From NCBI GenBank assembly GCA_028704415.1, contig JAQWFM010000003.1, positions 1 through 64,000 of the forward strand: DNA of 64,000 nucleotides, written 5' to 3'. The notes below the pieces were generated by a model. It saw only the letters and a list, made by a program, of their open reading frames with translations. It had not been told where the DNA came from and did not search any database. This document shows, piece by piece, positions 40,473-51,435 of the stretch. A program made the translations under genes and the position numbers. Each line of letters starts with the position of its first letter. Position 1 is the first letter of the stretch. This stretch comes from Oscillospiraceae bacterium. GTDB taxonomy: Bacteria > Bacillota > Clostridia > Saccharofermentanales > Fastidiosipilaceae.

Positions 40473-41642
40473 TTACTGTTCTTTATGTTGTGAATCCCGG
40501 TTCAGTCTGGCTGAACGGGCAATCAAATCGTCCATCGTTTGCCGCACAAAGCTGATATGAGATATGACGCGACTGTAATTCATCCGCATCGGGCCCAACA
40601 CCCCAATAAATCCCATCAGTTTGCCGGGTAAGGTATAGGTCGTCGTGACAAAACTGCAGTCTTCCAGACCTTCACTCTGCAACTCCTGACCGATACGAAT
40701 CATATACCGGCAAGGTTTGCAGTCAGCCTCACCGGGTGTGGTCGGCCCGCGCTTCTGATCTGCCTGGTTTTCAGGCAGATCAGAAGGCTGCGGCGTCAGT
40801 TGCCCTGACGTGCGCTCAGACTCCCATTGACGGTCTAAAAGGCCAAACAACAGCCCTTCCTGCGACAACTTATCCACGACATTCCGCGCCCGGCTGATAT
40901 CCTGAAACTCCGGGTGGGCAAATAAGTTAGGCATCCCGTTCAGGTAACTATCCAGATTATCACTTTGCTTTATGGCCGTATAAGCTTCATACATGATCTG
41001 ATTCAGCAGTGATTCCGGCAAAGAGGTCGCCTGCATAGCAGACTGAACGGCCACAAAAGTTATATCCTTCAGCTTCATACCGGCCAGATTAGCTTCAATA
41101 GCCTGACTAATCTTAAGCAAATCCTCTGCGCTGAGCAGATCCGGGATCCGGACAATCCGGTCTTTAACCTGCCCTGCAGAAAGCACCACCACAATCAAAG
41201 CCCGGCCAGGTTCAATCATCAGTAATTTAACCTGTAATAACTGACTGCTCTGGGCCTGCGGAGGCAGCGCTACGGACAGATAACCGGTGGTCTCCGACAA
41301 GACCCCGGAGGCGCGGCGCAAAAGCGTAGAAATTTCATTGACCTGCTCAGTCAGCGCCATCCTGATACCCCTGGCTTCCTCAGGCGGAAGCCACTCCACC
41401 TGCATCAGATTTTCTACATATTCACGATAACCTTTATCAGACGGCACCCGTCCGGAAGAGGTATGGGGCTGCTCCAGATAGCCTTGCTGCTCCAGCTCCG
41501 ACATCGTGTTCCTTACCGTTGCTGAGCTGACAGGCAGATGGTATTTGCTCACCAGATATTTAGAACCCACTGGCTCGGCTGTCTCAATATAATCATCCAC
41601 TATGACCTTTAAAATGTCCTTTTTACGGTGATCCAACGCCAT
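40473..41642 (-). CDS. hrcA: Heat-inducible transcription repressor HrcA
   Basis: Represses the operon by binding CIRCE when GroEL is free. The N-terminal winged helix (DDYIETAEPVGSKYLVSKYHLPVSSATVRNTMSELEQQGYLEQPHTSSGRVPSDKGYR) is textbook HrcA, and the GAF-like core and C-terminus (VLGPMRMNYSRVISHISF) are present. It carries a 30-residue insert rich in polar residues near 300-330. ATG at 41642 with GGAAGGAG upstream, and the track start is earlier. First gene of the operon. Confidence 0.97.
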   Translation of the reverse strand: MALDHRKKDILKVIVDDYIETAEPVGSKYLVSKYHLPVSSATVRNTMSELEQQGYLEQPHTSSGRVPSDKGYREYVENLMQVEWLPPEEARGIRMALTEQVNEISTLLRRASGVLSETTGYLSVALPPQAQSSQLLQVKLLMIEPGRALIVVVLSAGQVKDRIVRIPDLLSAEDLLKISQAIEANLAGMKLKDITFVAVQSAMQATSLPESLLNQIMYEAYTAIKQSDNLDSYLNGMPNLFAHPEFQDISRARNVVDKLSQEGLLFGLLDRQWESERTSGQLTPQPSDLPENQADQKRGPTTPGEADCKPCRYMIRIGQELQSEGLEDCSFVTTTYTLPGKLMGFIGVLGPMRMNYSRVISHISFVRQTMDDLIARSARLNRDSQHKEQ

Positions 41643-41674
41643 ACATACCACTCCTTCCGTCAGCAACTTAAGGT

Positions 41675-41701
41675 TTAGCACTCAAGTCTCCCGAGTGCTA
41701 A
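41675..41701. promoter_or_regulatory. CIRCE operator (HrcA binding site)
   Basis: A perfect TTAGCACTC-N9-GAGTGCTAA inverted repeat immediately before hrcA, overlapping the promoter. Confidence 0.95.
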
Positions 41702-41838: not shown

Positions 41839-43071
41839 CTAAACAAAAGCAGCAAAAACGTCATTGCCCCAGTCCAGGCCGCGCCGGCTGAGGCGGTAAC
41901 GCGGACCTGCCGCCGGCTCACAGATCAGTAAGCCTTCAGCGCATAAACGGCGTAATGCCAGCAGGATGTCCGGCGGGGGGGCCTGGCCAAAGCGCTGCTG
42001 ATAATCTGACAGCCTGACTCCGGCCAGTTTCCTTAAGCCCAGCCAGAAAAACTCCCGCTGGGCTTCCGCGCGGTCGATTGTTTCCGCAGTATCCGCCGCA
42101 GCAAAAGCCAATTGGGACCAGTCAGCTTCCGCACTGCTGACCTGCCCATAGATAGACAGATAGCCAGCCAGATCGCGGCGGTTGCAGCGCCGTACCCCGC
42201 CAATATAGCTGGCCGCAGACAGGCCGCAGGCCAGGTAGGGTCTGCCATCCCAGTACACCTCATTATGCCGGCTGGCGTAACCGGGCAAGGCGGCATTGCT
42301 GACTTCATACTGCTCAAACTGCCAGTCTTGCAGGCAGTCAAGTACGCATTGATACATTTGCCGCTCGGTCTCCGGCTCCGGGAGGTCAGCCAGTTGCCCC
42401 TTTCGGGCAGCCTGCGCAAACGGGGTACCTTCTTCAATAATTAAGGAATAAAAGGACAGATGTTTGAGGGGGAAACGGGACAGATAGGTCAGGCTTTCTG
42501 ACACATCTGTCAGCGTCTGCCCGGGCAGACCAATCATGAGATCCGCCGACAGATTTGAGATGCCAGCTGCGGTCAGGGCGTTGACCGTATCCGTAAAGTC
42601 AGCCACCGTATGACTGCGGCCCAGGCGCTTCAGCAGGCGGTCCTGCGCGGCCTGGAGGCCTATGCTGACCCGGTTGAAGCCTGCCGCCTGCAGCCGCGCG
42701 GCGTCAAGCTTATGTGCGCTGAGGGGGTTGCACTCTAAGGTAATTTCAGGCTGCGCCGCTATATTAAAGACAGAGTAGACCGTCTGCAGCAGTCTGAGCA
42801 GCCGGTCACAACCCAGCACGGACGGTGTGCCGCCGCCAAAATAAATCGTTTCCAGCGGTTTGCTTAATTGATGCTGTCGGAGCCATAAGGCGCTGGCTTT
42901 GATTTCAATCTGGATCGCGCGGACGTAGGGATCATAAAGCTGCTGCTGGCCGGCGCTGGAACAAAAATCGCAGTAGAGGCATTTACTGTCACAAAACGGA
43001 ATATGCAGGTACAAGGCAGTTACCGCCTGGCTTTCCGCAGGGTTAGATGGCGCAAAGCCTGCGGAGGTCAT
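41839..43071 (-). CDS. hemW: Radical SAM protein HemW (heme chaperone)
   Basis: A 410-residue radical SAM protein. The [4Fe-4S] motif is CDSKCLYCDF, preceded by ALYLHIPFC and followed by ETIYFGGGTPS and VSIGLQAAQDRLLKRLGR, which set HemW apart from true HemN. A winged C-terminal domain (RLCAEGLLI) follows. HemW binds heme and hands it to targets. The family was long mis-called coproporphyrinogen oxidase. The ATG overlaps the stop of the TOPRIM protein as ATGA, an unusual neighbour, as hemW often follows lepA in Firmicutes. Confidence 0.93.
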   Translation of the reverse strand: MTSAGFAPSNPAESQAVTALYLHIPFCDSKCLYCDFCSSAGQQQLYDPYVRAIQIEIKASALWLRQHQLSKPLETIYFGGGTPSVLGCDRLLRLLQTVYSVFNIAAQPEITLECNPLSAHKLDAARLQAAGFNRVSIGLQAAQDRLLKRLGRSHTVADFTDTVNALTAAGISNLSADLMIGLPGQTLTDVSESLTYLSRFPLKHLSFYSLIIEEGTPFAQAARKGQLADLPEPETERQMYQCVLDCLQDWQFEQYEVSNAALPGYASRHNEVYWDGRPYLACGLSAASYIGGVRRCNRRDLAGYLSIYGQVSSAEADWSQLAFAAADTAETIDRAEAQREFFWLGLRKLAGVRLSDYQQRFGQAPPPDILLALRRLCAEGLLICEPAAGPRYRLSRRGLDWGNDVFAAFV

Positions 43072-43784
43072 GGGTCTGCCGCCTCACTGCCGGCCGCTTC
43101 AAACTGGTCCAGACAAAAGGTGAGATATTGATAAAAGCGCTTGAAGCTGGGAGAATTAATTCGCTGCGGCTCCAGGCCCGGCGCGATCTGAGCCGCCCAC
43201 TCACTCTTTTGCTGGCCCACGGCCGGATAGCCCAGCTTAATCAATTGTTCCGCGGCTGGCCCCAAAATCGCCCGGGCTAAGACTTCCCAGGTCCCGCAGA
43301 CACTGTCTTGTTCATATTGGTCCAGTATGGCCGTGTCAATCTCCGGATAAGCCCGTAAAAGCGCGCTGCGATCGGCCAGTAACCAGGCTTCAAGCTCTTC
43401 CACCGCAATGCCGATAACGACCGGAAGCTCCGGGGCGACAACATGGTTCAGGGTTTTGAGGGTCCTGAATAGGTCCTGGCTGTCATGATCATCAGCATCC
43501 AGCACGACAAGCACCAAAGCCAGTTCGCTTTGGCCCAAGTCTCTGCGGTAGGCTTTGAGCTCAGCGGGTAATAACTGCAGCAGCCCGGCAGCCAGTTTGC
43601 CCGGTTTAGCCTGCCAGTCCCTGGGCAGATGCCCCACCCCACGGTGCCGTCGGATACTGTAAGTCCAGCCAGCCTGCCGTCGGGCTAAAGCAGGACGCAG
43701 CAGACCGCTGACAATCTGGCCGCCGGAACGGTCTTCAACCAATACCTCTATATGCCGTTTATGACTTAGAACTGCTCCCGGCAT
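43068..43784 (-). CDS. TOPRIM/DUF4276-like protein, probable nuclease effector
   Basis: 238 residues from an ATG at 43784 with GAGG upstream. The track starts one codon earlier at a TTG. It carries the elements of a TOPRIM-type catalytic core as in DUF4276: an N-terminal VLVEDRSGGQ (Glu near residue 17), a middle VVLDADDHD with the acidic triad, and then GIAVEELEAWLLAD. This order of E, DxD and a glutamate-rich EAWLLAD motif is typical of metal-dependent nucleases or primases of the OLD/DUF4276 kind. It is not a known housekeeping gene. The start overlaps the ATPase stop by one base and its stop overlaps hemW, so the three are tightly coupled. Nuclease activity is inferred. Confidence 0.72.
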   Translation of the reverse strand: MPGAVLSHKRHIEVLVEDRSGGQIVSGLLRPALARRQAGWTYSIRRHRGVGHLPRDWQAKPGKLAAGLLQLLPAELKAYRRDLGQSELALVLVVLDADDHDSQDLFRTLKTLNHVVAPELPVVIGIAVEELEAWLLADRSALLRAYPEIDTAILDQYEQDSVCGTWEVLARAILGPAAEQLIKLGYPAVGQQKSEWAAQIAPGLEPQRINSPSFKRFYQYLTFCLDQFEAAGSEAADP

Positions 43785-45151
43785 CAATCCGTACCTCGGG
43801 TTGTGGCAGACGTTCCGGTCTCCCCGGTTGCCGGGTTGGTTGCCGGGGCATCCAAAAATCCGGCATAAAGCAAGGCACCCAGGCCTACCCCTTCGGCTGT
43901 CATAGCCGCTACATGCGGTAAGGTTGCGCAGTTGATGGCCTGGGCTGCCGGCCTTATTGTGTCAGCTTGACTTGCAGCCTGCCGGGGATCAGCCGCCGGC
44001 CTGTCAGCCGGCCAGCTTATGCTCTGACGCCTGAATGACCAGACCTCCTGCGCGGCAAGGCTGTCCAAAAGGAAACTGTTATGTGAGGTCATAATCACCT
44101 GACAGTTCGCGTTTTTAAGGCTATAGGTCCTGAGGGCAGCGGCCCAGTTCTCAACCATGTTATGATACAGGCCGATATCCGGATTTTCCAGCAACAGCAG
44201 CGGTCTGGGGGCGGGGTCCTGCAGCAGCAGCAGCAGAGCAAACAGTTTTTCTTCACTGCCGGAAATCCGCTGATCAAAGAGATCCCGGTCCAGCGAGGTG
44301 CGGTCCGGCATACAATCCAGGATCTGCTCCATCCGCTTTTTATAGTCTTCAGGGTCACGATTCATTAAGTAGGTCAGCACATTGAACAGGTTGCTGGCAT
44401 CCTCATTCAGATGATGATGTCCGCCGCCGGTCTGTAATTGCTGCCGGAATACCTGCTGATGGCCGGATCTGGCGCCAAACTGAGTCTGATCAATTTCAAT
44501 CTTGCTGCAATACCAGCGGGTGATTTCGTGATACAGGCTCCGCAGCGGCATAAGGGTGCTGACCTGACCCAAAGCGCTCAGCACCGGTCGTTTTAAATCA
44601 TTCAGACTCAGGTCTTCATAAACCGGCGCGGCCGCAGGAGCTAAATCTAGCGTCTGCAGCAGCTGACAAGAGCGCAATTGACAATTAAATAAGAGCTGTT
44701 CCCGCCAAATGCCCGGCTCAACCTGAGCCGCATCAGCAGCAGAGGCATAAATAACCCGGCAGGATTCTGCCGCCACAAAGGGCCGCTGCTCCGCATCCGC
44801 ATCCAGTACAAGGCGGTAGGCCAGCAGATTTGGGTAGTCAGCTGTTTTAATCAGAAGTTCAAAACCAACCGGAGCGGTCAGATCATATTGTCTAAGGCTG
44901 CCAAAACCGCCGCTTTGCTCCAGATCTTCTGCGGCTTTAGCTGCCCCGTTCTTCAACATGCGACTAATAAAGGTCAGCGCGTTCAAAACAGTCGACTTAC
45001 CGCTGCCGTTGGGCCCGATTAACAGCGTCAGAGGCGTCAGCGCCGCAGTCTTAGGAGCAGCAGGCGCCGGGCCCAGCAGATCCTGGGCCAGCAAGCCCAT
45101 CCTAAAGTCCTTGAGAATAGCGTAATTTCTGATATGCAGGCCTAAGAGCAT
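43784..45151 (-). CDS. ABC-type ATPase (AAA_21-like) paired with the TOPRIM protein
   Basis: 455 residues. It begins MLLGLHIRNYAILKDF, the usual start of SMC/RecF-like ATPases, then has Walker A GPNGSGKST (46-54), a signature-like ISGSEEKLFALLLLL (296-310), Walker B LLLLENPDIG with the catalytic-position glutamate, and the switch motif MTSHNSF (354-360). This matches single-polypeptide AAA_21-type ATPases of defence modules rather than transporters, as there is no membrane domain. The C-terminal 80 residues are low-complexity. Its stop and the TOPRIM start overlap, so the pair probably forms one complex. A weak stem-loop separates it from the M28-like gene. Confidence 0.85.
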   Translation of the reverse strand: MLLGLHIRNYAILKDFRMGLLAQDLLGPAPAAPKTAALTPLTLLIGPNGSGKSTVLNALTFISRMLKNGAAKAAEDLEQSGGFGSLRQYDLTAPVGFELLIKTADYPNLLAYRLVLDADAEQRPFVAAESCRVIYASAADAAQVEPGIWREQLLFNCQLRSCQLLQTLDLAPAAAPVYEDLSLNDLKRPVLSALGQVSTLMPLRSLYHEITRWYCSKIEIDQTQFGARSGHQQVFRQQLQTGGGHHHLNEDASNLFNVLTYLMNRDPEDYKKRMEQILDCMPDRTSLDRDLFDQRISGSEEKLFALLLLLQDPAPRPLLLLENPDIGLYHNMVENWAAALRTYSLKNANCQVIMTSHNSFLLDSLAAQEVWSFRRQSISWPADRPAADPRQAASQADTIRPAAQAINCATLPHVAAMTAEGVGLGALLYAGFLDAPATNPATGETGTSATTRGTD

Positions 45152-45244: not shown

Positions 45245-46675
45245 TCATTCAGCCGTCACCGACGGGTCTGGTTCGCTTTCAGGCGTACTGTCGGCAGGCT
45301 GCGCGGCCGTTCCGGTACTTGCCTCTGCTTCTGTGGACACCGCGGCAGCGTCAGCCGCACTGACGGCGGTGTAGTCATCCACAGGCGTGTCCGCGCAAGT
45401 CAGCATGATATATGCCGCCGCATTTATTCGAAAACGCAGCTGATCCGCATCATACAGGCTCATCAGTTTCCAGGTAGCATCGTAATCAGTACCCTTGATT
45501 TGGCCACCGGTAGCCTCCAGCTCATTTTGAGCTGAATCGCTAACCTCATCAGCGCTGGGCACATCATATTGGCCGGCTTCCATGAATACGACCGGGATGC
45601 CGGCATTGTCAAAAGGCTGATAATCGCCGTCCTCCAGTGTAAACTCCCTGTAAATATAAGATTCGCCGCCATCTTCCAGCGTTACGGAATAACTGCCCTG
45701 ATTGGTCATCAGACTGACCCCGATTTCAGAATTGAGGTCGCCTTCCAGCGAAGCGTTAACCGCATCATAAAGCTTACGGCGCATTGCATACTTTTGGCCT
45801 TCATTGAGCGAGTTATGTCCCGCATGCGCGTACAATTTGTCGCCGCCATATATGGAGCGCAAAATAAACGCGCCATCCAGCACTGACAAAGTCGCGTCAT
45901 CCAGGCTTGAGAGATAAACCGCAGCGCCGCGGGACTGATCATTGCAGGCACCCATAAAGACGATTTGCAAATCATAGGCTACGGGCTGCTCCCGCAGGTT
46001 ATTTAACAGGGTCAGCAGAGCCGCCACGCCAGAAGCATTGTCAGAGATACCATTATAATCGGGATAGTCGGCGGCCTGATCTGCGGAGACAGGCGTATCA
46101 TACCGGGCGGCCATAATCATGGTTCTGTGGTATACCGTCAGGTCTTCCAAACTGTCCTGAACAGCCGATTGATCACCGGAAACAGTCAGCTGCGGGGTGG
46201 GACTGGGTGTCGGGGTTGGCGTTAAGCTGCCTGTACTTTCCGTACCGGACACCTTTTCTTCGATACGGTTCATTAAGGAGAGCAGCCAGTTTTGCTCTTC
46301 AAGCGCTTTTTCTCTGGCTTCAACGTCTTCCGTCCGGTAAAAGCCAGTACCGGGAACCGTGACAATCAGATTTTGGGAACTGCCGCTGTAGCCGCTGTCT
46401 TCCGCTGCTGTAAAGCTTTGTACCTCCGGCTGATATCCCATATCTACTAGCAAATTATAAAGATAGGCCGCCGTATTTTGCTCTTCCTGGCTGTATGCAG
46501 ACCGATAAGGATAGGCATTTGCAATTTTTTGGGCCTGTACGGAGCCATAATAGGAGAACAAGGCCGGATTTTCCGAATCAGTGCTATCGGCACAGCCAAC
46601 TAAAGGCAACAGCAAACAGGCTGTCAGAAAACAAGCCAGTAAGGGAAACCGTCTGCGCGGAGATCTAAGCTGCAT
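45245..46675 (-). CDS. M28-peptidase-like lipoprotein lacking most zinc ligands
   Basis: 476 residues with a lipoprotein signal: a basic start, a hydrophobic helix and lipobox LVGC with Cys28. A Thr/Pro linker (150-161) leads to an M28-like fold. In place of the family's AHYD it reads AARYD (Arg191 for His), Asp212 is kept in SDNASG, the catalytic glutamate pair is changed to CND (244-246), and the last ligand SDHxPF is GDYQPF (Tyr352). Four of five metal ligands and the base are therefore missing, so a zinc peptidase is unlikely. The C-terminal tail is Ser/Ala/Glu-rich. It starts four bases after galT. Confidence 0.68.
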   Translation of the reverse strand: MQLRSPRRRFPLLACFLTACLLLPLVGCADSTDSENPALFSYYGSVQAQKIANAYPYRSAYSQEEQNTAAYLYNLLVDMGYQPEVQSFTAAEDSGYSGSSQNLIVTVPGTGFYRTEDVEAREKALEEQNWLLSLMNRIEEKVSGTESTGSLTPTPTPSPTPQLTVSGDQSAVQDSLEDLTVYHRTMIMAARYDTPVSADQAADYPDYNGISDNASGVAALLTLLNNLREQPVAYDLQIVFMGACNDQSRGAAVYLSSLDDATLSVLDGAFILRSIYGGDKLYAHAGHNSLNEGQKYAMRRKLYDAVNASLEGDLNSEIGVSLMTNQGSYSVTLEDGGESYIYREFTLEDGDYQPFDNAGIPVVFMEAGQYDVPSADEVSDSAQNELEATGGQIKGTDYDATWKLMSLYDADQLRFRINAAAYIMLTCADTPVDDYTAVSAADAAAVSTEAEASTGTAAQPADSTPESEPDPSVTAE

Positions 46676-46678
46676 GTT

Positions 46679-47653
46679 TTACCAACCCCGTGCCTGCCGA
46701 AATTTTTGACAAGCCCCCCGCAGGTCTTTAGCCACAGCTTCCGGGGCAGTGGTATTGCAATGCGCCCAGGCGCCGGTTTCACTGGAGGCGTTGTATTTTA
46801 TCTTGTTTGCTGACCGCATGGGCGGGAAAAATTCAATGTGGAAGTGAAAATCCTCCCAGCCTTCACTATTAACCGGTGCATTATGCATGCACATCATGTA
46901 AGGGAACTTCATATCAAACAGCGCATCAAGTGTCCCGGACGCGGTTAACACCGCATCGGCCAAATCCTGCCGTTCCTGATCCGTCATGTCCAGCAGGGTA
47001 CCAAAGTGGCGCTTAGCAGCAATTTGAATGCCATAGGGATATTCACTGTAAAAAGGCAAATAAATCAAAAAGCTTTCATTTTCATATACAATACGCAGCG
47101 AGGCCTCAGTCTCCTGCTCCAGCCAGTCACACATCAGGCAGTGCCCGCTTGCTTCCCGGTGTTCAATCTGGGCTTTAAGTTCCAGTTCCAGTTTTTTGGG
47201 AATGAACGGATAGGCATAAATCTGGCCGTGGGGATGAGGCATGGTGACGCCTACGGCCTCGCCCCGATTTTCAAAGATAAAAATATACTTAAACTCAGGA
47301 TTTGACTTCAGTTTTTCAAAGCGCTCACACCACAAATCAACCAGTTTGTGAACATGCTCCAGGCTTAGCTCCGGCAGCGTCCGATTATGCTCCGGCGAAT
47401 ATAGGATAACCTCACACTTACCGTAACTGGGCCGGGTTTTAAACAAGCCGCCGCCCACTGGATCAGGCTGGGGGGGATTGGTAGACAACGCGGGAAAATC
47501 ATTGTCATATTCATACACATCATAATGCTCCGGAACTTTACCGCTGCCCGGGCAAAAGGGGCACCAGTCTTTAGGCATCTGCGGCCGGTTCTGCCGGTGA
47601 GATGCAATCATAACCCAATCTTGTATAAAAGGATTCCAACGTAGTTCAGCCAT
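46679..47653 (-). CDS. galT: UDP-glucose-hexose-1-phosphate uridylyltransferase
   Basis: Leloir pathway enzyme, moving UMP from UDP-glucose to galactose-1-phosphate. The catalytic histidine motif MPHPHGQIYAYP, the CPFCPG and CLMCDW zinc-type motifs and the HFHIEFFPP end of the family are present. 324 residues. No galK or galE is next to it. It shares a control region with the S11-like gene on the other strand and is followed closely by the M28-like lipoprotein. Confidence 0.94.
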   Translation of the reverse strand: MAELRWNPFIQDWVMIASHRQNRPQMPKDWCPFCPGSGKVPEHYDVYEYDNDFPALSTNPPQPDPVGGGLFKTRPSYGKCEVILYSPEHNRTLPELSLEHVHKLVDLWCERFEKLKSNPEFKYIFIFENRGEAVGVTMPHPHGQIYAYPFIPKKLELELKAQIEHREASGHCLMCDWLEQETEASLRIVYENESFLIYLPFYSEYPYGIQIAAKRHFGTLLDMTDQERQDLADAVLTASGTLDALFDMKFPYMMCMHNAPVNSEGWEDFHFHIEFFPPMRSANKIKYNASSETGAWAHCNTTAPEAVAKDLRGACQKFRQARGW

Positions 47654-47726
47654 GGGTTCCTCCCTAAATAAATAACTAAAGCAGCAGCTTTACTCTATAG
47701 GTTAAGCGGTGCTGCTGATCAGTCCA

Positions 47727-47814
47727 ATGATAGCAGAAAACACGGCTTATTGCACAGCAAACCCGCATATTGGCAGCAGTGCAGCCGTCCTGGCCCCGAC
47801 TTTTCTGCTATCAT
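47727..47814. promoter_or_regulatory. Divergent inverted repeat in the galT control region
   Basis: ATGATAGCAGAAAA (47727-47740) and its exact complement TTTTCTGCTATCAT (47801-47814) lie 60 bases apart between the two divergent genes. Each half contains an extended -10-like TGCTATCAT pointing outward to its own gene. -35 boxes are not clear. Confidence 0.5.
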
Positions 47815-47869
47815 AGCGTTAAGTCACCAAAAATCAGCAAGAAGCTGCTCAGACAGAAAGGAGTGCGCT

Positions 47870-49234
47870 TTGAGGCCATACGGAAAGGCAGGCAGGATCA
47901 GACACTGCTTAAACCAGGTCGCAGTTTTCATTGGTTTTCTGTTAACAGTGCAGGCCTGGGCACAGCCTGCGGCCAGCATCGCCGCGGCGCAGGCTGTGTC
48001 GTCAGCGAATGCTGCCACATCGCCTCAGGCCCAGGCCGTTGCTGATTACAGTTTTTTAGAACTGGAGCCCGCATCCCAGTCCGTCCTGATCAAGGAAGCA
48101 GAGCACGGCACCACCTTATACGCCCAGCAAGCCTCCCAGCCTGACTATGCCCCGCTGGCTCACCGCATGCTGACCGCGGTGGTGGCGCTGGAGTATCTGG
48201 ACAGTAAAGCCATGCTGACGATCAGCAAAACCGCAGCCCAATATATTGAGGACCGCACCGTTTTTACCACCGGCGGCCGCTATGATCTTTTTTACGTCCT
48301 GCATGCCCTGATACTGGAGGATTCCCAGGCTGCGGCAGTGGCGCTGGCAGAAGAAATCAGCGGCTCTGAAGCTGAATTTGTACAGCTGCTTAACAGCCAC
48401 GCGCGGAGTCTGGGCATGAGTGGGACACAGTTTACCAATGTTACCGGCGTATATGATGAAGCTCAGTACACTACCGCGGAAGATCTGTATCTGCTCTATA
48501 AGTACGCTATGTCGGTAAGCAGCTTTAAAGCCATCTACAATCAGCGAGATCGCACCTATTATTACAGTCTTAACATTAACCATTATTTTGTCAATCACTT
48601 TTCCTACGCCTGGAATTACGCTGATCAGGTCCAGGGCGGCATGATTTCAAAACAGGGGCAGGCCTACAGTGCGGTTTATACTGTCCGCAACTCCGCCCAG
48701 GCCTATACCTATACTGTATTTTTATCCGGCAGTCATGTCACCTCTTCCTTAAGCCAAAACAGTGTTTTGATAACCGATATCATCGCCATTAACCGGCAGC
48801 TCCAGAGTCATTATGAAAAATCCATCCTGGCTTATAAAGGCGACAGCTTTGACCGTGAATATCAGTTAGCCGGCAAAACCGTAGCTTTGGAATTTCAGGA
48901 TACTGTTGCCTATGTCCACCCGGTAGGTGATGACTTCAGGCAGCAAACGGAACTGGTGATGAATGAATCACCGCCCAGTTTTCCTATTCTCACCGATGAA
49001 ACGCTAGGCTATGTCTGGTTTATGCTGGACGATGGCTCGGCTATCCAGGTGCCGGTCGCCTCTTCCACCGAAATTCATTCGCGCAATCAGTTTTTAGATT
49101 GGCTCCTGGTCATTATTGACAGTAATAAAACGTTGATCGGACTGATCCTGATTGTTTTTACAGCCCTGCTGGTACTGCTGAGCAGCCGTTTCAGGCAGCG
49201 CCGGCTGCTCAGGCAATTAAGGCAGCACCGCTAA
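47870..49234 (+). CDS. S11 D-Ala-D-Ala carboxypeptidase-like protein, apparently inactive
   Basis: The fold outline is DacA-like: after a signal peptide come QSVLIKEAEHGTTLYAQ, LTAVVALEYLDS and then LNSHARSLGMSGTQFTNVTGVYDEAQYTTAEDL, as in the family. But the SxxK nucleophile motif is replaced by PLAHRM (95-100), the SxN position reads LEDSQAA and the KTG position reads MISKQGQ, so all three penicilloyl-serine active-site motifs are missing. A C-terminal transmembrane helix (about 420-440) follows, then a basic tail. The start is a TTG at 47870 with GGAG six bases upstream, and the signal peptide begins there. The longer track start adds non-family sequence. Probably a pseudo-enzyme that may bind peptidoglycan. 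Confidence 0.75.
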   Translation: MRPYGKAGRIRHCLNQVAVFIGFLLTVQAWAQPAASIAAAQAVSSANAATSPQAQAVADYSFLELEPASQSVLIKEAEHGTTLYAQQASQPDYAPLAHRMLTAVVALEYLDSKAMLTISKTAAQYIEDRTVFTTGGRYDLFYVLHALILEDSQAAAVALAEEISGSEAEFVQLLNSHARSLGMSGTQFTNVTGVYDEAQYTTAEDLYLLYKYAMSVSSFKAIYNQRDRTYYYSLNINHYFVNHFSYAWNYADQVQGGMISKQGQAYSAVYTVRNSAQAYTYTVFLSGSHVTSSLSQNSVLITDIIAINRQLQSHYEKSILAYKGDSFDREYQLAGKTVALEFQDTVAYVHPVGDDFRQQTELVMNESPPSFPILTDETLGYVWFMLDDGSAIQVPVASSTEIHSRNQFLDWLLVIIDSNKTLIGLILIVFTALLVLLSSRFRQRRLLRQLRQHR

Positions 49235-49255
49235 CCACAGCCCTACGGCCCTGCC

Positions 49256-49864
49256 TTATCCCCGGTCGCCCCGGTGCTGCCTTAAGCGCCGCAGCCAGGG
49301 GTAAGCCTTTTCCAGGACAAAATCATAGACCAGACTAAAAATGATTTCCGCAGGTAAAATAAGATAAGGCCAGCCCGGCAGCGCGGCCCAGCTATTCAAC
49401 AGAGCTGTACCGCTGAGTTTAAGCAGCAGCCAGAACCACAGCCACAGCAGGCCCTGCAACAAAATTAAGGCCGGCAGCCGTGACAGCCAGCCTGACGCTG
49501 GTGCTGCCGCGGATTGATCCGGGGCCTTAGGCTGAACCGTCCGGAAGCGATATCTTGTTTTGCCCAATACACATTTGAGCAGCGGATACGGTCCACCAAT
49601 AATTACAAAAGAGAGTGCGTCCGGCAGTCCCGGGACCAGGAGACTGAAGGCCGACGCGCCCAGATAGACCAGCCCGCCTGCCGCTTTACCCCAGTTCAGG
49701 CAGACAAACCAGATAATCAGGCTCAACAGCAGATTGATAAACAAGTCAGCCGTAGGAAGATACCGGTTTATTAACTGCAACAGCAAAATCAGCGCAAGCG
49801 CGATGCCGCCGCCGGCCACAACTTTAACCTGTCCGGGTCCAGGCTGAGGGTCAGCAGCAGGCAC
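49256..49864 (-). CDS. Polytopic membrane protein of unknown function
   Basis: 202 residues from a GTG at 49864 with GGAGGGG upstream. The longer track start at 49903 has no site. About five hydrophobic segments fill most of the length, with a polar loop around 130. No family was recognised. It overlaps the end of the J-domain gene by 14 bases, so it is likely co-expressed with it and the DUF5685 gene. Confidence 0.65.
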   Translation of the reverse strand: MPAADPQPGPGQVKVVAGGGIALALILLLQLINRYLPTADLFINLLLSLIIWFVCLNWGKAAGGLVYLGASAFSLLVPGLPDALSFVIIGGPYPLLKCVLGKTRYRFRTVQPKAPDQSAAAPASGWLSRLPALILLQGLLWLWFWLLLKLSGTALLNSWAALPGWPYLILPAEIIFSLVYDFVLEKAYPWLRRLRQHRGDRG

Positions 49865-50273
49865 ACAAATCCCCTCCCATGCATTCACAACAGGTATCCG
49901 CAATGCAAAGGCCCGTCAGGGCATCACAGCAGCCGTCTCCGCTGCCATAAGGGCTGTAATAGCCTCTCCCCCAGCCGGAGGGCTGGCTGCCGCTGCCATT
50001 AGATTGATAAGGGCCGTAACTGCTCCGGCCAAACGGATTATCATAACCTGTATGCTGGCCGGACTGATCATAGCTCTGTCGCTTTTGCTCATTGCTCAGG
50101 ATATCATAGGCCTCATTAATTTCCTGCATTTTTTCCTGAGCCAGATTCTTCATATTAGGATCAGTATACTGATCCGGGTGATACTTTTTAACCAGCTGAT
50201 GGTATGCTTTTTTAATGGTTTCCGCATCACTGCCCCGGCTGACACCAAGAACCTGATAAGGATCTTTGTTCAT
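49851..50273 (-). CDS. J-domain protein with a cysteine-rich end
   Basis: 140 residues. The first 68 are a standard J domain (DPYQVLGVSRGSDAETIKKAYHQLVKKYHPDQYTD with the HPD motif). A Gly/Ser/Tyr-rich linker follows, and the last residues hold eight cysteines (CCDALTGLCIADTCCECMGGDLCACC). The start is the ATG at 50273 with AGGAG upstream. Unlike DnaJ it has no zinc repeats or substrate domain, so it is a specialised co-chaperone. It lies next to the DUF5685 gene, a pairing common in Clostridia. Confidence 0.85.
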   Translation of the reverse strand: MNKDPYQVLGVSRGSDAETIKKAYHQLVKKYHPDQYTDPNMKNLAQEKMQEINEAYDILSNEQKRQSYDQSGQHTGYDNPFGRSSYGPYQSNGSGSQPSGWGRGYYSPYGSGDGCCDALTGLCIADTCCECMGGDLCACC

Positions 50274-50373
50274 ACTGTCTCGTGCTCCTGTCTGTCTGGC
50301 TCCCGGCCGAACATTCATTATTATATCACGTGATTTTGCTCTTTTAGTCTAGTACGGTCAGGTTAAACGAAGC

Positions 50374-51435
50374 TTAAAGCTTATTGAGCGGCCGGCCGGC
50401 GGCAATTTGTCTGGCCACCGCGGGCAAACCCTGGGTCAGGATATTGCCAACCAGAGGCTGCAGCCGCTGATACGGTAAAAGCTCCAGAGCCTGCGCGCAA
50501 TCTGCCTGCTGGGTAAATAAAAGATAATCTGCCTTAACCCGGTAGAGCATCCAGGCACTGGCCTGGCTCAGATCCAGCTGCGCCGTCTCCGGATAGTTAG
50601 CCTGTGACTGCGCCCAGGCGTCTGCAGTCACAGGCAGGACAGCTGCCCGTAATAAAGCGTTATAGCGTCCGGCTGTTTGATCCGCCTGCCAGTCGGCCAA
50701 AGCGTCTGCATAGTAAACCCAGCGGCCCAGCGCGGTCATGCCCGTCCGGACCGCGGCCTGCTGGCCGGTGGTTAAGCCCGTCACCCCAGCCGTCTGCAGT
50801 CCCAGCAGCATCAGCTCCGCCAGTAAATTACCAAAGGCTGTCGCGGCCGGGTCAGCTCCGGCAAAGGCGCGGCAACTGACAGTCATGCTATCCGTCAGGC
50901 CGGACGCAGCTTCATCCGCCTGATTAAATACTGTACCGGCTAAAACCGGGTCAATGCTGCCGGCGCTGGCCGGGTTCTGCTGCAGCTCAGCGGCATTCAG
51001 CTCAGACAGGTGCTGCCGGATAAGCTTCCAGGCCAGCGGGTAGGCGCGCCGGGCCCTGGCGGCCGCGCTTTGCCAGATCAGCTTCAGGCCTTGATTGAGC
51101 ACACGTTTTTCACCATCCTGAATATTATCCTGCAGTTTACCTTCAGCCAGCAAAACTGAGACCGCCGCGCTGTAATCCAGTGCAGGATCCGGCTGTACAG
51201 CCGGCCGTTTTTGGCGTGGGTGAATCAGGCAGCTGACCTGCGCCCAGTCAGGCGGATCCGGCTGCAAAGCGTGCAGGTAAATGGCCATAAAGGTCAGGTC
51301 ATAGCTCAGGCTCAGGCGCGGCAGCTGGCCGTAATGATTCCGGATAGCCTGACACAAGCCGCAATAGTAACCGCGGTAGATATTGAACTCGCGGATCTTC
51401 AATTCTTCTTTAAGGGGGCGGACATTTCCGTACAT
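50374..51435 (-). CDS. DUF5685 family protein
   Basis: 353 residues. The N-terminus MYGNVRPLKEELKIREFNIYRGYYCGLCQAIRNHYGQLPRLSLSYDLTF is the diagnostic start of DUF5685 proteins, with the GYYCGLC cysteine pair probably binding metal. The rest is helical, with no other motif recognised. Function unknown. It leads a group with a J-domain protein and a membrane protein on the minus strand, divergent from gltX. Confidence 0.8.
   Translation of the reverse strand: MYGNVRPLKEELKIREFNIYRGYYCGLCQAIRNHYGQLPRLSLSYDLTFMAIYLHALQPDPPDWAQVSCLIHPRQKRPAVQPDPALDYSAAVSVLLAEGKLQDNIQDGEKRVLNQGLKLIWQSAAARARRAYPLAWKLIRQHLSELNAAELQQNPASAGSIDPVLAGTVFNQADEAASGLTDSMTVSCRAFAGADPAATAFGNLLAELMLLGLQTAGVTGLTTGQQAAVRTGMTALGRWVYYADALADWQADQTAGRYNALLRAAVLPVTADAWAQSQANYPETAQLDLSQASAWMLYRVKADYLLFTQQADCAQALELLPYQRLQPLVGNILTQGLPAVARQIAAGRPLNKL

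What the first reader, a model, noticed from the sequence alone, without database searches (positions are those of the whole stretch)
43068..45151. ATPase plus TOPRIM/DUF4276-like pair: candidate defence system
Sequence: the two genes overlap by one base. The first has Walker A, a signature-like motif, Walker B with a glutamate and a switch histidine, but no membrane part. The second has the E ... DADDHD ... EAWLLAD order of a TOPRIM-like nuclease. Family knowledge: an ATPase plus a TOPRIM nuclease is the make-up of OLD, Gabija and PARIS defence systems, and DUF4276 proteins are often found beside AAA_21 ATPases. Inference: this is an ATP-gated nuclease module of an unnamed subtype. It is unusually embedded in a housekeeping operon with galT and hemW.
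Basis: partly seen in the sequence, partly recalled or inferred. Interest (0 to 1): 0.78.

Follow-up and report, generated by a model that had tools for sequence, protein, structure and literature searches.

The report
Order-wide ATPase–TOPRIM pair beside hemW
Two overlapping genes for an ATP-binding protein and a probable TOPRIM nuclease, which resemble a known candidate phage-defence pair (HEC-01), turn out to be a vertically inherited chromosomal unit joined to the housekeeping gene hemW in about four fifths of the good genomes of one bacterial order, so here they look like a fixed core-genome part rather than a mobile defence system.

Summary
An ABC/SMC-type ATPase (43784-45151, minus strand) and a DUF4276/TOPRIM-like protein (43068-43784) overlap by one base, and the second overlaps hemW by four. 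The pair is not unnamed: PADLOC models of the candidate system HEC-01 match both proteins best. Its position is not unusual either. In the window's order 137 of 188 genomes (83 of 106 good ones) carry the relative. All 44 surveyed loci that reach that far have ATPase-TOPRIM-hemW. A profile search found none in about 373 genomes of the class outside the order. The TOPRIM tree follows the hemW tree (r = 0.81), and TOPRIM is more conserved than hemW. Pair-less genomes keep the operon without the two genes. The nearest outside relatives sit on prophages and plasmids. Catalytic acidic residues of TOPRIM are invariant (40 of 40), but the ATPase's catalytic glutamate is kept in only 8 of 39 (Asn323 here), whereas Walker A is intact. 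Best reading: an HEC-01 branch fixed early in this order as an ATP-binding-gated nuclease, more likely for genome or RNA maintenance than for classical mobile defence. The function is inferred, not shown.

The parts
43784..45151 (-). ABC/SMC-type (AAA_21) ATPase, 455 aa, HEC-01A-like
   Evidence: Pfam AAA_21 1.7e-18; PADLOC PDLC04182 9e-56; Foldseek hits of the model: retron PtuA, OLD, SMC, Rad50
43068..43784 (-). DUF4276 / TOPRIM-like putative nuclease, 238 aa, HEC-01B-like
   Evidence: Pfam DUF4276 4.5e-8; PADLOC PDLC04205 3.9e-64; catalytic acidic residues invariant in 40 relatives
44990..45016 (-). Walker A GPNGSGKST (residues 46-54)
   Evidence: G46, G51, K52 invariant in 39 relatives
44177..44200 (-). 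Walker B region LLLLENPD (318-325): acidic Glu322, Asn323 at the catalytic-glutamate position
   Evidence: position 323 is E in only 8 of 39 relatives; E in mobile relatives
44246..44266 (-). degenerate ABC signature ISGSEEK (296-302)
   Evidence: mobile relatives and L052/L056 have SDGTLK
44081..44083 (-). switch histidine His357
   Evidence: His in 37 of 39
43734..43736 (-). TOPRIM Glu17 after strand 1
   Evidence: invariant 40/40; model strand 11-16
43491..43499 (-). TOPRIM D96-A-D98 at end of strand 88-97
   Evidence: invariant 40/40; model
43389..43400 (-). TOPRIM E129-E130-x-E132 after strand 122-128
   Evidence: invariant 40/40
41839..43071 (-). hemW (radical SAM, HemN_C), overlaps the TOPRIM stop by 4 bases
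   Evidence: Pfam; adjacent to the pair in all loci that reach it
40473..41681 (-). hrcA, first gene of the hrcA-grpE-dnaK-dnaJ-prmA block downstream
   Evidence: Pfam HrcA
45245..46675 (-). M28-family peptidase (probable lipoprotein) upstream
   Evidence: Pfam Peptidase_M28 9.4e-9
46679..47653 (-). galT upstream; its proximity is seen in the window, its genus-mate and L063, not across the order
   Evidence: Pfam GalP_UDP_transf

Best explanation
The pair is a chromosomal branch of the HEC-01 ATPase-TOPRIM clade that was fixed at the hemW locus in the ancestor of this order and has since been inherited vertically, with losses in some small-genome lineages. Shown: its conservation, position, vertical descent and residue pattern. 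Inferred: the ATPase binds ATP and assembles with the TOPRIM protein, holding or licensing it. ATP binding (and release), rather than fast hydrolysis, works as the switch, because the catalytic glutamate has been replaced in most lineages while Walker A, the Walker B acid and the switch histidine stay. The TOPRIM protein is a two-metal nuclease cutting DNA or a structured RNA. Its present role is more likely a host maintenance or stress function made together with hemW than a horizontally traded phage defence.
For: Near-universal and nearly always single copy in the order: 137/188, 83/106 good genomes. None in about 373 other genomes of the class. ATPase-TOPRIM-hemW in every surveyed locus that is long enough, usually with overlapping TOPRIM and hemW genes. 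Family-clustered tree, one order clade against the mobile clade 100/99. hemW and TOPRIM tree distances r = 0.81, shuffles at most 0.23, 20 of 37 splits shared. Mean pairwise identity TOPRIM 44.7% against hemW 38.9%, grpE 39.1%, ATPase 33.9%. Catalytic acidic residues invariant 40/40; Lys52 39/39; catalytic Glu 8/39. By contrast the mobile relatives keep EEPENG and SDGTLK, and a canonical DUF4276 pair is in one genome of 188, inside a restriction island.
Against: No activity, target or phenotype is shown. Vertical inheritance does not exclude defence, as fixed innate systems exist. Absence from pair-less genera shows that it is not essential. The TOPRIM fold rests on motif order, model topology and the DUF4276 family; Foldseek gave no significant TOPRIM hit at this model quality. 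Loss of the glutamate does not prove loss of hydrolysis.
Confidence: 0.6

Rival explanations
1. A still-active antiphage system that became fixed in one order: the ATPase senses infection and releases or activates the TOPRIM nuclease (as AriA and AriB do in PARIS), but it is inherited vertically.
For: Both proteins match HEC-01 models best; close relatives are cargo of prophages and a conjugative plasmid; the split ATPase plus TOPRIM make-up equals PARIS (PMC12409363, PMC9122126).
Against: Fixed position beside hemW, no defence neighbours there, strong purifying selection on TOPRIM, absence from the rest of the class. In PARIS, mutation of predicted ATPase catalytic residues abolished defence (PMC9122126), while here the catalytic glutamate is mostly gone.
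Confidence: 0.3
2. A mobile defence island copy recently inserted into a housekeeping operon.
For: HEC-01 family membership by HMM.
Against: The same insertion point relative to hemW in four families of the order, congruent trees, no close relatives elsewhere in the class.
Confidence: 0.03
3. The TOPRIM protein replaces RNase M5 (5S rRNA maturation), which the order lacks.
For: No RNase M5 over the cut-off in any of the 188 order genomes.
Against: Pair-less members of the order lack RNase M5 as well, and many other genomes of the class also lack it without having the pair.
Confidence: 0.04

Closest known systems
HEC-01 (PADLOC Hma-embedded candidate; HEC-01A ATPase + HEC-01B DUF4276)
   Same: Best HMM matches for both proteins; same gene order; phage and plasmid copies of the same HMM cluster (PDLC04182/04205) are the nearest outside relatives.
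   Different: Vertically fixed beside hemW in one order; catalytic glutamate and signature decayed; no defence neighbours. The sources found here do not report experimental validation of HEC-01 itself.
PARIS (AriA + AriB)
   Same: Separate ABC ATPase and TOPRIM nuclease genes; AriA is a weak HMM and PDB match.
   Different: AriB is DUF4435, not DUF4276; PARIS is found in hotspots of phages and satellites and needs its ATPase catalytic residues (PMC9122126).
OLD / Gabija GajA nucleases
   Same: ABC ATPase coupled to TOPRIM; OLD 6P74 is the top PDB sequence match of the ATPase profile (5.5e-6).
   Different: One fused polypeptide there, two genes here; no UvrD-like helicase partner here.

Membership tests
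HEC-01 | ATPase matches HEC-01A models | tested here: met
   PDLC04182 9e-56, best of all PADLOC families
HEC-01 | adjacent DUF4276 protein matches HEC-01B models | tested here: met
   PDLC04205 3.9e-64; Pfam DUF4276 above cut-off
HEC-01 | located in defence islands or on mobile elements | tested here: not met
   housekeeping context in all surveyed order loci; met for the relatives L122, L123, L151, L152, L163, L182
HEC-01 | antiphage activity | not testable with these tools
   no experiment possible
ABC/SMC-type ATPase | Walker A, Walker B acid, switch His | tested here: met
   39/39, 39/39 and 37/39 in the alignment
ABC/SMC-type ATPase | catalytic glutamate after Walker B | tested here: not met
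   Asn323 in the window; Glu in 8/39 relatives
TOPRIM nuclease | E ... DxD ... E order with invariant acidic residues | tested here: met
   E17, D96, D98, E129, E130, E132 invariant 40/40
TOPRIM nuclease | TOPRIM fold | tested here: inconclusive
   model pLDDT 74 with beta-alpha-beta-alpha-beta-alpha-beta order and E17/DxD at strand ends; no Foldseek hit at E <= 0.001
PARIS | DUF4435 AriB partner | tested here: not met
   the partner is DUF4276
Gabija / OLD | ATPase and TOPRIM fused, or a UvrD-like helicase partner | tested here: not met
   two separate genes; neighbours are hemW and an M28 peptidase

The most novel reading that the evidence does not exclude
A defence-type ATPase-TOPRIM module was domesticated once at the root of a bacterial order into a core nuclease unit coupled to hemW, with repeated loss of ATPase hydrolytic residues turning the sensor ATPase into an ATP-binding regulator of a conserved nuclease with a host substrate.
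Probability: 0.35. Interest if true: 0.75.

Novelty: new variant of a known kind. Interest (0 to 1): 0.5.

Why it matters
Defence-finder models would probably label most species of this order as carrying a defence system, which on this evidence is a clade-wide core unit: a caution for defence censuses. If the domestication reading is right, it is a many-species example of a defence-type nuclease turned into a cell function, and the repeated loss of the catalytic glutamate makes the question of whether such ATPases need hydrolysis directly testable.

Tried and rejected
Recent horizontal insertion: rejected by synteny and tree congruence. RNase M5 replacement: no specific support. In-frame TAG in G173 and G179: the same loci give uninterrupted proteins of 226 and 232 aa, so probably the alignment ran past the end of the gene. 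Foldseek of the TOPRIM model: uninformative. Papers: no paper in the library uses DUF4276 by name, and no HEC-01 study was found. Consensus promoters and terminators: little above shuffles, so no transcript boundary was inferred. The related-loci scan of genome contigs found only the genus-mate.

Full report
What is there. On the minus strand at 43068-45151 lie two genes that overlap by one base (TGATG at 43784), and the second overlaps hemW by four bases. The first encodes a 455-residue AAA_21 ATPase (1.7e-18), the second a 238-residue DUF4276 protein (4.5e-8, over Pfam's cut-off). Among PADLOC models both match the candidate defence system HEC-01 best: HEC-01A PDLC04182 9e-56 and HEC-01B PDLC04205 3.9e-64. 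A model of the ATPase resembles retron PtuA, OLD, SMC and Rad50 heads. The model of the second protein (mean pLDDT 74) has strand 11-16 followed by Glu17, strand 88-97 holding Asp96 with Asp98 just after it, and strand 122-128 followed by Glu129-Glu132, which is the TOPRIM order; Foldseek found no significant match, so the fold remains unproven here.

Distribution. A protein search of the window's order found the DUF4276 protein in 137 of 188 genomes and in 83 of 106 good ones, with a single match in nearly all of them. The exceptions with two matches are G079 and G127, where two contigs each carry the block, and G085, where the match is split at contig ends. A profile of 40 order members, searched against 391 genomes of the class, found only order members; about 373 genomes outside the order had none. 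In 399 genomes of the phylum only seven weak matches turned up besides the window's own (2e-21 to 6e-7). A canonical DUF4276 protein (173 bits) occurs in just one of the 188 order genomes. There it sits with an ATPase, a GmrSD-type endonuclease and a type IV methyl-directed restriction enzyme. The mobile style of this family is thus visible in the same order and looks quite different.

Context. I fetched 45 loci from four families of the order. Next to TOPRIM lies an ATPase in every one, and hemW follows in every locus that reaches so far (44; one is cut by its contig end). In one genome (L071) hemW is turned round but still adjacent. Upstream genes differ: recG-rsmD-coaD and a DivIVA-like gene in family f3 (product names are my reading of the sequences), NfeD and an SPFH/stomatin gene or an M28 peptidase in the other families; galT near the pair is seen only in the window, its genus-mate and L063. 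Genomes without the pair keep M28-NfeD-SPFH-hemW-hrcA-grpE-dnaK, or a shorter form of it, with the two genes missing. Those listed are mostly small genomes.

Descent. In the TOPRIM tree the order forms one group apart from the mobile relatives (100/99), and the group labels need 5 changes where 4 is the least possible and shuffles average 25. For 40 shared loci, distances in the hemW and TOPRIM trees correlate at 0.81 (best of 1000 shuffles 0.23), and 20 of 37 splits are shared. Over 27 shared loci TOPRIM has a higher mean identity (44.7%) than hemW (38.9%), grpE (39.1%) or the ATPase (33.9%), though lower than hrcA, dnaJ or dnaK.

Mobile relatives. The nearest relatives found outside the order are on a prophage in a Rahnella plasmid, between antitermination and lysis genes (L151); on a conjugative Pseudomonas plasmid (L152); on proviral contigs (L122, L123, L163), where L163 has an integrase-like gene nearby; and on a human faecal phage record (L154). 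L122 scores 643 and 302 bits with the same two HEC-01 models, so these are HEC-01 proper.

Residues. In 40 TOPRIM proteins Glu17, Asp18, Asp96, Asp98, Glu129, Glu130, Glu132 and others never vary. In 39 ATPases Lys52 is invariant, the Walker B acid is D or E in all, and position 357 is His in 37. But the catalytic-glutamate position reads T13, N9, E8, S2, A2, Q2, Y1, H1, G1. The glutamate is kept in part of families f2 and f4 and in the mobile relatives, and lost throughout the sampled f1 and f3; the signature motif is also lost in f3. That suggests several independent losses from an ancestor that had it; I did not reconstruct the ancestor formally.

How it most likely works. Shown: a fixed, vertically inherited two-gene unit with a conserved nuclease-like active site and an ATP-binding site. 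Inferred: the ATPase binds ATP, assembles with TOPRIM and gates it, without fast hydrolysis. PARIS is the nearest worked-out parallel: AriA holds AriB until triggered, and AriB cuts tRNA with a TOPRIM site (PMC12409363). In PARIS, mutation of the predicted ATPase catalytic residues abolishes defence (PMC9122126), so the decay here suggests that the gating differs. I favour a host maintenance or stress role, with fixed defence as the main rival.

Known or new. The kind is known (HEC-01, a candidate system; PMC12988326 cites the HEC set and states that several HECs, including HEC-06, have antiviral activity in experiments, without naming HEC-01). New, as far as I could find, are its fixation in one order, the link to hemW, and the repeated loss of the catalytic glutamate. 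The only named relative fetched is Oscillospiraceae bacterium HV4-5-C5C, class Clostridia.

Noticed in passing
L182:914-9450 (G154): A separate HEC-01 pair in the same order sits in a restriction island with a GmrSD-type endonuclease and a type IV methyl-directed restriction enzyme; its ATPase keeps the canonical VDEPELGLHP and SDGTLR motifs.
   Followed up: partly
window 45245-51435: Block of M28 peptidase, D-Ala-D-Ala carboxypeptidase, small J-domain protein and DUF5685 recurs next to the pair or to hemW in several families of the order; function unknown.
   Followed up: no
order-wide: No RNase M5 over the family cut-off in any of 188 genomes of the order, whereas 39 of 196 class genomes exceed the cut-off and many more match over most of its length.
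   Followed up: partly
L071:6381-8341 (G022): hemW is inverted relative to the pair but still immediately adjacent, unlike every other surveyed locus.
   Followed up: no
L153, L165: HEC-01 pairs lying directly before a type I restriction R subunit and after an S subunit, on a Meiothermus plasmid and a viral contig.
   Followed up: no
L045/L046 (G127) and L047/L048 (G079): Two contigs of one genome each carry the ATPase-TOPRIM-hemW block; likely mixed strains in the assembly.
   Followed up: no
G003: A single-contig genome of the family lacks the pair and also shows no clear hemW (best match only 8e-10).
   Followed up: no
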